From the NCBI RefSeq assembly GCF_002727065.1, contig NZ_PDVP01000007.1, positions 1 to 64,000 of the forward strand: a stretch of 64,000 nucleotides of DNA, written 5' to 3'. The notes beneath the pieces are model-generated. The model made no database searches. It saw only the letters and a program-made list of their open reading frames with translations, and was not told where the DNA came from. Positions 51,308-57,830 of the stretch are shown one piece after another. A program made the position numbers and the translations under genes. Position 1 is the stretch's first letter; every line of letters starts with the position of its first letter. Source of the stretch: Zhengella mangrovi (GTDB lineage: Bacteria > Pseudomonadota > Alphaproteobacteria > Rhizobiales > Rhizobiaceae).

Positions 51308-51340
51308 GGGCGGCTTCCGGCGCATCACGCAGACATGAAC

Positions 51341-51370
51341 GGCCCGGTCCTTGCAGCCGGGCCTTTTCTT
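51341..51370 (+). terminator. Intrinsic terminator after the DUF2059 gene
   Basis: GGCCCGG (51341-51347) pairs with CCGGGCC (51357-51363), followed by TTTTCTTT. Confidence 0.75.
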
Positions 51371-51442
51371 TGCGACATCGCTGACCATGTCCTGCCCAGG
51401 CGCATCCGCGCCAGCCATCCCGTGACTTCGAAAGGTATTGCC

Positions 51443-52834
51443 ATGACCGCGTATGACTACGACCTCTTCGTGATCGGCGGAGGATCCGGCGGCGTGCGTG
51501 CCGGGCGCCTGGCCGCTTCGCTCGGCAAGCGGGTCGCGATCGCCGAGGAATACCGCTACGGCGGCACCTGCGTCATCCGGGGTTGCGTGCCCAAGAAGCT
51601 CTTCGTCTATGCCTCGCAATTCGCCGAGCACTTCGAGGATGCGGCCGGGTTCGGCTGGAGCGTCGGCGAAACGACTTTCGACTGGCCGACGCTGATCGCC
51701 AACAAGGACAAGGAGATCGCGCGGCTGGAGGGGCTCTACCGCAAGGGACTCGACAACGCCGGGGCGACCGTTCTCAACTGCCGCGCCGAACTGGTGGACG
51801 CACACACGGTCCGGCTCGTCGGCGAGGACCGGACGGTCACGGCGGACCAGATCCTGATCGCCGTCGGCGGGCGCGCCAACCCGCACAATGCGCTGCCCGG
51901 CCACGAGCTTTGCATCACGTCGAACGAGGCCTTCCACCTCGAGACCCTGCCGAAGGCGATCGTCATCGAGGGCGGCGGCTATATCGCGGTGGAATTCGCC
52001 AACATCTTCCACGGACTTGGGGTCGAGACGACACTGGTCTACCGCGGCAAGGAAATCCTGGGCCGCTTCGACATGGACATGCGCCGCGGCCTGCACGAGG
52101 CGATGGAGGCCAAGGGCATCCGGATCGTCTGTCACAACGTGATCCGCGAGGTCGCGCGCCGCGACGGCGGCGGGCTGACAGCGCATCTTTCCGGGGGCGA
52201 GACGCTTCAGGCCGACCAAATCATGCTGGCCATCGGCCGGGTGCCGAACACCGAGGGGCTGGGGCTGGACGCGGCAGGGGTGGAGACGGACCACGCCGGC
52301 GCCGTCGTCGTCGACGACTACCAGCGCACCAGCGTGGAGAACATCTGGGCGGTGGGCGATGTCACCAACAAGGTGCAACTGACGCCGGTGGCCATCCACG
52401 AGGCGATGTGCATCGTCGACACGCTGTACAAGGGACGTCCGACGAAGCCGGACCGCGACACGATTGCCACGGCGGTCTTCTCGCAGCCGGAGATCGGCAC
52501 GGTGGGGCTGTCGGAAGACGAGGCGATGCACCGGTTCGAGGACCTGGAAATCTACCGCGCTTCCTTCCGGCCGATGCGGCACACGCTGTCCGGGCGGCAG
52601 GAGAAGATGATCATGAAGATCGTCGTCGACGGGGTGACCCGCCGGGTCCTGGGCTGCCATATCCTCGGGCCGGATGCCGGCGAACTGGCGCAGGTACTCG
52701 GCATCGCGGTCAAGGCGGGGCTGACGAAGGACGATTTCGATCGCACGATGGCGCTTCACCCGTCGGCGGCGGAAGAGCTGGTCACCATGTACCAGCCGAG
52801 CTGGCGGGTGAAGAACGGCCAACGGCTCGACTAG
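51443..52834 (+). CDS. gor: Glutathione reductase
   Basis: From ATG 51443 the 463-residue flavoprotein has the FAD fold DLFVIGGGSGGVRAGRLAAS, the redox disulfide GGTCVIRGCVPKK, the NADPH-binding IVIEGGGYIAVEFANIFHG and the C-terminal catalytic His in MALHPSAAEELVTMY. It reduces glutathione disulfide with NADPH. Confidence 0.94.
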   Translation: MTAYDYDLFVIGGGSGGVRAGRLAASLGKRVAIAEEYRYGGTCVIRGCVPKKLFVYASQFAEHFEDAAGFGWSVGETTFDWPTLIANKDKEIARLEGLYRKGLDNAGATVLNCRAELVDAHTVRLVGEDRTVTADQILIAVGGRANPHNALPGHELCITSNEAFHLETLPKAIVIEGGGYIAVEFANIFHGLGVETTLVYRGKEILGRFDMDMRRGLHEAMEAKGIRIVCHNVIREVARRDGGGLTAHLSGGETLQADQIMLAIGRVPNTEGLGLDAAGVETDHAGAVVVDDYQRTSVENIWAVGDVTNKVQLTPVAIHEAMCIVDTLYKGRPTKPDRDTIATAVFSQPEIGTVGLSEDEAMHRFEDLEIYRASFRPMRHTLSGRQEKMIMKIVVDGVTRRVLGCHILGPDAGELAQVLGIAVKAGLTKDDFDRTMALHPSAAEELVTMYQPSWRVKNGQRLD

Positions 52835-53108: not shown

Positions 53109-53624
53109 CTACTTCGTGCAGTAGCGCCGTGGCCCGTGGTAGGGCTGGTAGGTGCAGTCCCGCGCCCTGAAGCTGCGATAGGCGCGCGCGCAAGCGCGGT
53201 AATTGCAGTAGGGCGGTTCGTCGTCGTCGTAATACCAGCCGGGAACCGGCACCGGGTACACCCAGTAAGGCGGCGGCGGCAGCCGGCGCCAGTGGCGCGG
53301 CGGGGGATAGCGCCAATGCCGCCTCGGCAGGCGCCGCCAGTGCCTCGGGGCGCGCTGCCTCAGGTCATAGTTCGGCCGCCTGTGCCAGTGGCGCGAACGC
53401 CGGTACGTGTGCCTGAACTCGCTGTTGCGGCCCTGGGCCAGCTGGATATCCGGTTTCGCGGTGGCCTGCTCCGGCAGGATGGTCGCGCCACCGGTTGCCA
53501 GTTTCGGGGGAGCGGCCACCGTATCGGCCGACGAGGCGGCCGCGGCCGGACCTGCCATGGTCGCGGCGACTGCGCAGAGCAGACCCACGGCGCCGGGGAT
53601 GAAAAAGCGGAAAATTCTCTTCAT
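53109..53624 (-). CDS. BA14K-family secreted protein (copy 1)
   Basis: The 171-residue protein has a signal peptide, a long Arg/His/Pro/Trp-rich middle and the BA14K C-terminus (CNYRACARAYRSFRARDCTY, then QPYHGPRRYC). BA14K proteins, first found in Brucella, are small immunoreactive lectin-like envelope proteins. A second one lies upstream on the same strand. Confidence 0.85.
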   Translation of the reverse strand: MKRIFRFFIPGAVGLLCAVAATMAGPAAAASSADTVAAPPKLATGGATILPEQATAKPDIQLAQGRNSEFRHTYRRSRHWHRRPNYDLRQRAPRHWRRLPRRHWRYPPPRHWRRLPPPPYWVYPVPVPGWYYDDDEPPYCNYRACARAYRSFRARDCTYQPYHGPRRYCTK

Positions 53625-53836: not shown

Positions 53837-54271
53837 CTATTTCGTGCACTGGCGGCGCGGACCGCGATAGGGCTGGAACGTGCAGTCGGACGCGCGGAAG
53901 GTGCGATAGGCGCGCTTGCAGGCGCGGACATCGCAGGACCGCTTCATCGGCCTGCGCTTGCCGGCCATCGCCGGCTTCCGGTTGTCGTGGCGCGGGGCCA
54001 TGGATGGCGGCGGCACGGGCGCCCGCCGTCCCATCCGCGGGGTCTGAGGCACCAGCCAGGCGGGCGGCGTCGGCTGCATGCCAAACGGCGGCGGCGGGAT
54101 GTACTGGGCCGGCAGAACCGCCGGGCCGGATGGCCGGACGGACGTGACTGCGTGCGTCGCGACCGACGCACCGCCCGCGGGGAGCGCCATGGCGGATGGG
54201 GCGGCCGCGATGGCCGCCAGGCACGACACGCCGGCGATCGCCGGCAGGATCGTGCGGAGCAGGGTCTTCAT
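53837..54271 (-). CDS. BA14K-family secreted protein (copy 2)
   Basis: The 144-residue protein has a signal peptide, a Pro-rich middle (IPPPPFGMQPTPPAWLVPQT) and the BA14K end (CDVRACKRAYRTFRASDCTF, QPYRGPRRQC). It is a tandem paralogue of the gene at 53109, with the same spacing of the four Cys. Confidence 0.85.
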   Translation of the reverse strand: MKTLLRTILPAIAGVSCLAAIAAAPSAMALPAGGASVATHAVTSVRPSGPAVLPAQYIPPPPFGMQPTPPAWLVPQTPRMGRRAPVPPPSMAPRHDNRKPAMAGKRRPMKRSCDVRACKRAYRTFRASDCTFQPYRGPRRQCTK

Positions 54272-55495: not shown

Positions 55496-56077
55496 ATGGA
55501 TGCCGGTCTCATCGCCTGGTTCGGATATGGCTCGCTGGTCAACCGGGCGACGATCGGCTGGGCTTACGAAGGTGCCTGGCCCGCGCGGCTGTCCGGCTGG
55601 CGGCGCCACTGGCGGCCGCGGCCCGACATGCCGGGATTCCCGGCCGCGCTGCTGACGGTCTCGGCGGACCCGGAGGCCGGCTGCGACGGGCTTTTGGTTC
55701 TCGACCGGGTGGAAAACCTCCCGGCGCTGGACAGGCGCGAGGGGCGCTATCACCGGCGGCTGGTGGACCGGGCCGCGCTGTCCGGCGTGGAGGTGCTGCC
55801 GGCAACTTGCCCGGTCTACGTCTACGAGGCGATGGACCATCTGCCGGTGCACCGCGACCCGCCACGCATCCTCCGGTCCTATCTCGACGTGGTCATGAAA
55901 GGCTTCCTCGATGAGCACGGGCCGGACGGGCTGGAGCGGTTCCTGCAGGAAACCTTCCGGTTCGACATGCCGATCCACGAGGACCGCGCCGCGCCGGTCT
56001 ATCCGCGCCATGTTCCGGCCAGCGCCGAGGAGCGGGACCTGTTCGACCGGCTGACGGCTTCAATTCAGGTAGAATGA
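55496..56077 (+). CDS. Gamma-glutamylcyclotransferase-like protein
   Basis: The 193-residue protein from ATG 55496 (AAGGA upstream) has the GGCT-like N-terminal IAWFGYGSLVNR, the LDRREGRYHRRLVDR segment with the conserved acidic residue, and CPVYVYEA. The fold releases 5-oxoproline from gamma-glutamyl compounds in known members. The true substrate is not certain. Confidence 0.75.
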   Translation: MDAGLIAWFGYGSLVNRATIGWAYEGAWPARLSGWRRHWRPRPDMPGFPAALLTVSADPEAGCDGLLVLDRVENLPALDRREGRYHRRLVDRAALSGVEVLPATCPVYVYEAMDHLPVHRDPPRILRSYLDVVMKGFLDEHGPDGLERFLQETFRFDMPIHEDRAAPVYPRHVPASAEERDLFDRLTASIQVE

Positions 56078-56165
56078 ATAATCTATTCAGAACAAATTAC
56101 AGCTTGAATTTTTAATTCACGGGTGCTTTAAGGTCTCCGACTGAACGGAAAGAGGCAGCAGACCC

Positions 56166-57830
56166 GTGGATATCCCGACCCTGACAGGACGCCAGATCAA
56201 GTTCATCCGCTCCATGCTCGACCTGTCGCAGGCCGAACTGGCGGCGAAGGCGGGTGTTTCCCAACCGACGATCTACCGCATGGAAATGGACCCCAACCGG
56301 GTTCACGAATCCATCGCGGTGATGAAGATCAAGTCGCTGGCCGACGAAAACCTGCTGATGGTGCCCGACCACGGGGCCTTTTCCGGACAGCCGATCTTTG
56401 CGAGCCCTGCGCCGAGCAGCCAGGCACAGCCAAACCCGATGAAGACAGGTGCGACCATGAGCGAAAACTGGACCCCGGATTCCTGGAGAAGCAAACCGAT
56501 CCTGCAGGTGCCGGACTACCCGGACCCGGCAGCGCTGGACGAGGTCGAGGGGCGCTTGCGCACCTATCCGCCGCTGGTCTTTGCCGGAGAGGCGAGGGCG
56601 CTGAAGAAACGCCTGGCCGCCGTGGCCGAGGGCAAGGCCTTCCTGTTGCAGGGCGGCGATTGCGCCGAGAGCTTCGCCGAGCACGGCGCCGACAATATCC
56701 GCGACTTCTTCCGCGCCTTCCTGCAGATGGCCGTGGTGCTGACCTTCGCCGGTTCCAAGCCGGTGGTGAAGGTTGGCCGCATCGCCGGGCAGTTCGCCAA
56801 GCCGCGCTCTTCCGACAACGAGACGAAGGACGGCAAGACGCTGCCCTCCTACCGCGGCGACATCATCAACGGCATCGACTTCGACGACGCCTCGCGCATT
56901 CCCGATCCGCAGCGCCAGGCAATGGCCTACCGGCAGTCGGCGGCGACGCTGAACCTGTTGCGCGCCTTCGCGCAGGGCGGTTTCGCCAGCCTGGACAACG
57001 TGCACCGCTGGATGCTCGGCTTCGTCTCCGACAGCCCGCAGCGCAACCGCTACGAGGCGCTTTCGGCCCGCATCACCGAGACGATCGACTTCATGCGCGC
57101 CATCGGCATCACCGCGGACAATCACCGCAGCCTTTCGGAAACCGAGTTCTACACCAGCCACGAGGCGCTGCTGCTCGGCTACGAGGAAGCGCTGACGCGC
57201 GTCGATTCCACGTCCGGCAACTGGTACGCGACCTCCGGCCACATGCTGTGGATCGGCGACCGGACCCGCCAGCCCGACCATGCGCACGTGGAATACTGCC
57301 GCGGCGTGGAAAACCCGATCGGCCTGAAGTGCGGTCCGTCGATGGATCCCGACGGCCTGCTGAACCTGATCGACATCCTGAACCCGAACAACGAGGCCGG
57401 ACGGCTGACGCTGATCGCCCGTTTCGGATCCGACAAGGTGGGCGAGCACCTGCCGAAGCTGGTTCGCGCGGTGGAGCGGGAAGGGCGCAAGGTCGTCTGG
57501 TCGTGCGACCCGATGCACGGCAACACGATTTCGGCGGGCGGCTACAAGACGCGGCCGTTCGAACGCGTGCTGAAGGAAGTGGAAGGCTTCTTCGACGTGC
57601 ACCAGGCCGAGGGCACCCATGCCGGCGGCGTGCATATCGAGATGACCGGCAAGAACGTGACCGAGTGCACCGGCGGCGCCCGCGCGATCTCGGCCGACGA
57701 TCTGTCCGACCGTTACCACACTCATTGCGACCCGCGGCTGAACGCCGAGCAGTCGCTGGAACTGGCCTTCCTGATCGCCGAGCGGCTCAAGCGCGACCGG
57801 GCACCGGCCGACCAGATGGCCGCCGAATAG
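56166..57830 (+). CDS. Class II DAHP synthase with an in-frame N-terminal XRE helix-turn-helix
   Basis: Residues 98-554, from ATG 56457 ([15 protein letters not shown]), form a full class II 3-deoxy-7-phosphoheptulonate synthase with [38 protein letters not shown] and [11 protein letters not shown]. This is the first step of aromatic amino-acid synthesis. The frame continues upstream without a stop to GTG 56166 and encodes a XRE-type HTH ([20 protein letters not shown], then [11 protein letters not shown]). The HTH may be a separate read-through domain or a real fusion. Only a weak ribosome site precedes 56457, and an AAAGAGG lies before 56166. Confidence 0.85.

What the first reader, a model, noticed from the sequence alone, without database searches (positions are those of the whole stretch)
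56166..57830. Helix-turn-helix fused in frame to DAHP synthase
A XRE-type HTH of about 70 residues and a short linker precede the enzyme without a stop codon. The usual enzyme start is at residue 98 and has only a weak ribosome site. The gene could encode a DNA-binding DAHP synthase able to link aromatic synthesis to transcription, or two products.
Basis: partly seen in the sequence, partly recalled or inferred. Interest (0 to 1): 0.5.

Follow-up and report, generated by a model that had tools for sequence, protein, structure and literature searches.

The report
Conserved DNA-binding domain on DAHP synthase
In a small group of alphaproteobacteria, the enzyme that opens the pathway to aromatic amino acids carries a conserved DNA-binding head, and a matching palindrome lies in front of its gene, so the enzyme may control its own supply.

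Summary
One open frame, 56166-57830 (GTG start, 554 aa), joins an XRE/Cro-type HTH (residues 1-69), a variable linker (70-97) and a complete class II DAHP synthase. It is not a chance frame: 7 of 394 family genomes searched carry the same fusion, in 4 genera, and their enzyme parts group together on a tree. The HTH is under purifying selection nearly as strong as the enzyme's. No frame resembling it lies near the enzyme in 27 unfused relatives. In this genome it is the only DAHP synthase found. New here: the palindrome TGAAT-N5-ATTCA lies twice upstream (56075-56089, 56105-56119), at two of its three places in the genome; it recurs upstream in 6 of 7 fused genomes and in 0 of 27 unfused relatives. 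The internal start at residue 98 keeps a ribosome site typical of unfused relatives; one genus has strengthened it greatly. Best reading: a natural trigger enzyme that binds its own promoter, perhaps with a second, HTH-less product. DNA binding, repression and the second product are inferred. Closest known: PutA/BirA-type trigger enzymes and the engineered HTH-shikimate kinase chimera Q1.

The parts
56075..56089 (.). palindrome 1, TGAAT-N5-ATTCA (candidate operator)
   Evidence: exact; one of 3 places in the 5.07 Mb genome; this dyad is shared by 6 of 7 fused upstream regions and has at least 2 mismatches in 27 unfused ones
56105..56119 (.). palindrome 2, TGAAT-N5-ATTCA, 30 bp from the first, so half-sites are 10, 20 and 10 bp apart
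   Evidence: full dyad in G000, G001, G025; its left half TGAAT is present in all 7
56104..56109 (+). TTGAAT, possible -35 box overlapping palindrome 2 (weak)
   Evidence: read from sequence; the consensus scan found no sigma-70 promoter here
56151..56156 (+). ribosome site of the long form, AGAGGC
   Evidence: -5.8 kcal/mol, spacer 9
56166..57830 (+). HTH-DAHP synthase, 554 aa, GTG start
56166..56372 (+). XRE/Cro-type HTH domain, residues 1-69
   Evidence: Pfam HTH_3; AlphaFold2 best model pLDDT 90.0, the five models 90.0 to 59.8; nearest solved folds C.Kpn2I, HipB, SinR
56373..56456 (+). variable linker, residues 70-97, whose end overlaps the enzyme's older ribosome site
   Evidence: in-frame indels, higher dN/dS; low confidence in the full model
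56447..56451 (+). internal ribosome site AGGTG
   Evidence: -4.7 kcal/mol, spacer 5; like elements in unfused relatives
56457..56459 (+). internal ATG (residue 98), start of the 457-aa enzyme
56469..57779 (+). class II DAHP synthase domain, residues 102-538
   Evidence: PF01474, TIGR01358; P. aeruginosa 5uxm, 684.3 bits

Best explanation
A trigger enzyme. Shown: this genome's only detected DAHP synthase carries an in-frame XRE/Cro-type HTH that is conserved in seven genomes, whose enzyme parts group together, and that selection maintains; a palindrome marks the upstream regions of the fused genes. Best explained by one gain of the HTH between the glutathione reductase gene and the synthase gene. 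Inferred: the long form is made from the GTG at 56166; HTH pairs, brought together by the multimeric enzyme, bind the half-sites TGAAT/ATTCA (10, 20, 10 bp apart, one face of the helix) over the gene's own promoter and repress it; substrate or aromatic end-product binding alters the enzyme and, through the linker, DNA binding, so supply of the pathway's first enzyme follows demand. Also inferred: ribosomes starting at residue 98 make a normal 457-aa enzyme, and mixed multimers may tune repression. My estimates: translated fusion 0.93, palindrome bound by this HTH 0.65, autorepression 0.55, second product 0.5.
For: Fusion in 7 of 394 family genomes with a wide score gap and in 3 of 3 genomes of one genus; one side of a branch on the enzyme tree, support 100/95. 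dN/dS of HTH and enzyme: 0.052 and 0.044 (G000/G001), 0.138 and 0.129 (G000/G025), 0.076 and 0.129 (G001/G025), 0.032 and 0.022 (G072/G228), 0.055 and 0.036 (G072/G164), 0.218 and 0.201 (G000/G119); linker 0.06-1.03. Palindrome: 3 places in the genome, two of them 30 bp apart and 91 and 61 bp before the start; most-shared dyad of the fused upstream regions (6 of 7), 500 single-letter shuffles reached 2 at most, and in 27 unfused upstream regions no dyad was shared by more than 2. No other DAHP synthase in this genome: the one PF00793 hit is KDO-8-phosphate synthase. Residues C166, H451, E492, D522 align with C, H, E, D of the M. tuberculosis enzyme and are invariant in 29 sequences, 7 fused and 22 of the 27 unfused.
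Against: No binding, expression or proteomic data. In G119 the upstream dyad has other spacing and that genome has no exact copy. In g72 only palindrome 1 is complete; in G025 only palindrome 2. The consensus promoter scan found none. The upstream lineages share ancestry, so 6 genomes are not 6 independent cases. The palindrome could belong to another regulator. In distant pairs the HTH's replacement rate is about twice the enzyme's (0.321 against 0.146 for G000/G072; 0.269 against 0.148 for G000/G119). HTH profile scores are modest; four of the five AlphaFold2 models of the HTH are weaker (86.3 to 59.8), no Foldseek match is at E <= 0.001 and VIA Z values are middling. The full-length model is poor (mean pLDDT 58.8), so domain arrangement and tetramer were not modelled.
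Confidence: 0.57

Rival explanations
1. Two products with the HTH mainly a passenger: most enzyme is made from residue 98, and the long form is minor with little regulatory effect.
For: Internal ribosome site where unfused relatives have theirs; in g72 three genomes carry AAGGAGG before an in-frame GTG at the enzyme start, -12.4 to -12.7 kcal/mol, beyond the 1% quantile of in-frame positions.
Against: HTH dN/dS is close to the enzyme's; a passenger should drift as the linker does. In the window the outer start has the better ribosome site (-5.8 against -4.7); the outer sites are -5.8 to -9.3 in 6 genomes and -3.2 in G119.
Confidence: 0.2
2. The HTH is an allosteric or assembly module used for protein contacts rather than DNA; the palindrome belongs to another regulator or is another kind of element.
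For: Class II DAHP synthases use extra elements, N-terminal extensions among them, for assembly and amino acid sensing (PMC6435475, passages).
Against: Palindrome and HTH occur together: 6 of 7 fused, 0 of 27 unfused. S32 Q33 P34 T35 R38 E40 in and before the recognition helix are invariant in the seven. No Rfam match at the site.
Confidence: 0.13
3. The fused protein also acts on several other genes in trans.
For: Further exact palindromes exist in 5 of the 7 fused genomes.
Against: Their number (0-3) is no higher than in 4 unfused genomes (0-6); G164 has only the one at its own gene; the third site in G000 lies by transposase- and acetyltransferase-like frames (my reading). Degenerate sites were not searched, and the surroundings of the further sites in G001, G025, G072 and G228 were fetched but not analysed.
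Confidence: 0.07
4. Sequencing or assembly error, or a chance open frame in high-GC DNA.
For: Long chance extensions do occur: 5 unfused order members have 124-225 open residues before the enzyme.
Against: Those 5 show no HTH in Pfam; seven separate genomes carry the same fusion under selection.
Confidence: 0.02

Closest known systems
Trigger enzymes with an added DNA-binding domain (PutA, BirA, NadR)
   Same: Metabolic enzyme with a DNA-binding domain; E. coli PutA binds only the spacer between putA and putP and represses (PMC8249747, passages)
   Different: Other enzymes and, as recalled, other DNA-binding domains; DNA binding here is untested. No DAHP synthase case appeared in the listings of searches (three of them heavily capped: 15 of 1,052, 15 of 1,297 and 10 of 6,405 papers shown; one search showed 20 of 25)
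BzdR and the Q1/Q2 chimeras (XRE HTH + shikimate kinase)
   Same: N-terminal XRE HTH and linker joined to a shikimate-pathway enzyme fold; Q1 kept catalysis and DNA binding (PMC3602430, abstract and sections 3, 14, 16)
   Different: BzdR has lost catalysis and controls benzoate degradation; Q1 was built in the laboratory; here the fusion is natural, in the pathway's first enzyme, with catalytic residues kept
Class II DAHP synthase of P. aeruginosa PA2843 (5uxm) and M. tuberculosis AroG (2b7o)
   Same: Same enzyme family over residues 95-545 and 105-542
   Different: No HTH; PA2843 is a Trp-inhibited tetramer with a short N-terminal extension (PMC6435475, passages)
C.Kpn2I, HipB, SinR and other XRE regulators
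   Same: HTH fold (VIA Z 8.1 to C.Kpn2I, 69 residues, rmsd 2.9; Foldseek E 1.2e-3)
   Different: Free-standing regulators; 22-38% identity in the ten best Foldseek rows

Membership tests
Class II DAHP synthase (TIGR01358) | score over curated cut-off, whole domain | tested here: met
   712.4 bits against 614.7; positions 1-441 of 443
Class II DAHP synthase (TIGR01358) | metal ligands Cys, His, Glu, Asp (identity as ligands recalled) | tested here: met
   C166, H451, E492, D522 align, counted by hand, and are invariant in 29 sequences
Class II DAHP synthase (TIGR01358) | catalytic activity | not testable with these tools
   only DAHP synthase gene found in the genome, hence probably active
XRE/Cro HTH (PF01381) | score over curated cut-off | tested here: met
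   26.5 bits (whole protein) or 29.0 (fragment) against 23; 31 of 55 positions
XRE/Cro HTH (PF01381) | helical HTH fold | tested here: met
   best model pLDDT 90.0, others down to 59.8; top structural rows are XRE regulators, best Foldseek E 1.2e-3, best Z 8.1
Trigger enzyme | enzyme that also binds nucleic acid and controls expression | not testable with these tools
   domain and conserved palindrome present; binding unproven
HipB / Y4mF antitoxin (TIGR03070) | score over cut-off | tested here: not met
   29.5 (whole protein) or 32.9 (fragment) against 71.65 bits

The most novel reading that the evidence does not exclude
A natural intermediate between enzyme and regulator: the pathway's sole first enzyme is its own repressor, reading aromatic amino acids or substrates through its allosteric sites, with a tetramer's four HTHs laid on four in-phase half-sites, and a built-in second start that supplies HTH-less subunits to tune repression.
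Probability: 0.3. Interest if true: 0.78.

Novelty: new variant of a known kind. Interest (0 to 1): 0.6.

Why it matters
DAHP synthase gates carbon into the shikimate pathway and is usually described as controlled by end products and by separate regulators (recalled). Here control protein and enzyme may be one molecule. The BzdR authors built such an active enzyme-regulator to argue how regulators arise from enzymes (PMC3602430); this clade may hold one that evolution made and kept, with unfused sisters as controls. It is directly testable with one protein and one 60-bp promoter fragment.

Tried and rejected
Separate upstream HTH gene in relatives: no frame like this HTH in 27 unfused loci (an unrelated HTH would have been missed). 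Chance N-terminal extensions: 5 unfused order members have them, without a Pfam HTH. Two more were fetched because one search gave frames of 1122 and 736 aa (L162, L163); in the fetched DNA the frame is 472 aa with 19 residues before the enzyme, and I did not resolve the difference. Class members with this HTH in a long frame: three were opened; by my reading none is a DAHP synthase. Order-wide survey, 397 genomes: among the rows printed only the window aligns from residue 1 (next from residue 63); the list was cut, and none of the other six fused genomes is among the rows I saw. Class survey with the HTH alignment, 385 genomes, at most 15 candidates scored in each: only the window is fused. 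A fusion to an unrelated HTH in other phyla was not searched for. Full-length AlphaFold2 model: poor, not used. Promoter, terminator and Rfam scans: nothing. The first DNA alignment used unturned loci and was discarded. Twelve stretches around further palindromes were fetched and not analysed. In unfused G017 a palindrome lies about 1.8 kb downstream of the synthase gene; I take it as chance. The backward control pattern occurs 1 time in G017 and 3 times in G026, 0 in the other 9 genomes. I did not test for tryptophan-site residues.

The motif was noticed by eye first and then tested; the control used single-letter, not dinucleotide, shuffles. In the window itself, with 1 mismatch allowed, 3 matches against 1.42 expected are not unusual; the weight lies on the exact, genome-wide and cross-species counts. 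The linker's lowest dN/dS (0.06, G072/G228) rests on a dS of 2.9, near saturation.

Full report
OBSERVATION. The frame at 56166-57830 is open and reads 554 residues from a GTG. Pfam places HTH_3 at residues 12-42 (26.5 bits, cut-off 23) and DAHP_synth_2 at 102-538 (706.9 bits); NCBIfam places TIGR01358 over its cut-off. The enzyme part matches the solved class II enzymes of Pseudomonas aeruginosa (684.3 bits) and Mycobacterium tuberculosis (about 452 bits).

NOT CHANCE. With the whole protein, 58 of 61 genomes (the window's own among them) have a match; in 3 (G000, G001, G025) it runs from residue 1, in the other 55 it starts at residue 70 or later or is a fragment. Four of those 55 also have weak unlinked HTH matches (E 2.6e-5 to 6.6e-4). 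With residues 1-73, 7 of 394 family genomes (G000, G001, G025, G119, G072, G228, G164) match at E 1.6e-24 or better in open frames of 555-585 aa; 143 more match at E <= 0.001, the best at 1.8e-8 in a 131-aa frame. All 3 held genomes of the genus of G072 have the fusion. In 385 genomes of the class only the window is fused to this HTH. Long chance extensions exist in the order, but the 5 tested show no HTH.

ONE GROUP. A tree of the enzyme part alone, 7 fused and 27 unfused rows, puts the fused set on one side of a branch (100/95), and the rooting on L033 makes it a clade next to L007 and L018 (94/85). 12 of the 27 unfused loci show a glutathione-reductase C-terminal motif upstream of the synthase. 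In fused loci L034 and L035 the reductase (TIGR01424 over cut-off) ends about 2.5 and 1.9 kb upstream of the HTH; the window has a like frame at 51335-52834; in L111 it ends 85 bases before the HTH start, its stop codon being the first three bases of the palindrome. So the HTH seems to have been gained between these two genes. No frame like it lies near the enzyme in the 27 unfused loci.

SELECTION. dN/dS in the HTH is near the enzyme's in the 6 of 8 pairs that gave a ratio (for example 0.052 and 0.044; 0.138 and 0.129; 0.032 and 0.022), while the linker is looser (0.06-1.03) and carries in-frame indels. In distant pairs the HTH changes about twice as fast as the enzyme (0.321 against 0.146 for G000/G072). 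The HTH folds, in the best of five models, with pLDDT 90.0 into helices 8-17, 22-29, 33-41 and 50-61; the other models are 86.3 to 59.8. It is nearest to C.Kpn2I, HipB and SinR, at moderate scores.

ENZYME FUNCTION. Cys166, His451, Glu492 and Asp522 align with the C, H, E, D of the M. tuberculosis enzyme (that these are metal ligands is recalled) and are invariant among 29 sequences. The genome has one class II match and one PF00793 match, which is KDO-8-phosphate synthase. The fused gene is thus the only DAHP synthase found here and probably active. PF00793 was not searched in the other fused genomes.

PALINDROME. TGAAT-N5-ATTCA occurs at 56075-56089 and 56105-56119 and at one further place in 5.07 Mb, beside transposase- and acetyltransferase-like frames (my reading). 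It is found exactly in the 160 bases before the start in 6 of 7 fused genomes; the seventh, G119, read from an overlapping contig end, has both TGAAT half-sites but other spacing. In 27 unfused relatives the best match within 450 bases has 2 to 4 mismatches. Asked without a motif in mind, this dyad is the most shared among fused upstream regions (6 of 7); shuffles give at most 2, and no dyad is in more than 2 of 27 unfused regions. Half-sites in the window lie 10, 20 and 10 bp apart. Elsewhere the motif is at background: 1, 3, 2, 3, 3, 0 and 0 more in G000, G001, G025, G072, G228, G164 and G119, against 3, 2, 0 and 6 in four unfused genomes. This points to a single target, its own gene.

TWO STARTS. 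The window's residue-98 ATG has AGGTG five bases upstream (-4.7 kcal/mol); the outer GTG has AGAGGC (-5.8). Neither stands far out of the frame's own background (10% of positions reach -6.2). Unfused relatives start at the same place with like sites, for example CAGGTG in L007 of the sister lineage (median -4.3 of 27). So the linker's end looks like the old leader, and the internal start is as good as the relatives' start. In the three g72 genomes it has become AAGGAGG before an in-frame GTG (-12.4 to -12.7), beyond the 1% quantile of in-frame positions. In G001, G025 and G119 it is weak (-3.8, -2.8, -3.4).

MECHANISM. The economical reading is a trigger enzyme that binds its own promoter; Best explanation says which steps are shown and which inferred. 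Characterised type II enzymes are tetramers with amino acid sites at subunit interfaces (PMC6435475, passages), which could couple ligand state to the placing of the HTHs; this is inference. The engineered Q1 protein, an XRE HTH on active shikimate kinase, kept both activities, repressed its promoter and answered to shikimate in vitro through the linker, but not in vivo while catalysis was intact (PMC3602430, section 14). That is a caution for ligand control here, and in my view favours end-product over substrate sensing.

NOVELTY. Trigger enzymes are known (PMC8249747 and PMC6978683, passages). No report of a DAHP synthase with an HTH appeared in the listings of searches of an open-licence library; four listings were capped (36, 54, 80, 81), and most subscription papers are not held. 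The finding is a new variant of a known kind.

Noticed in passing
window 53109-53624 and 53837-54271, minus strand: Two neighbouring small frames are both BA14K-like proteins (PF07886, 29.8 and 26.5 bits, cut-off 26).
   Followed up: partly
L111, L112, L113 (genus g72), before the enzyme start: Near-perfect Shine-Dalgarno inside the coding frame of the fusion, before an in-frame GTG, in 3 of 3 genomes.
   Followed up: partly
L110 and L114 (G119): The fused gene lies across two contigs whose ends overlap by about 100 identical bases.
   Followed up: yes
window 56063-56067: A further ATTCA half-site lies upstream of palindrome 1, also in G001.
   Followed up: no
L111, 4920-4934: The stop codon of the glutathione reductase gene is the first three bases of the palindrome.
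   Followed up: no
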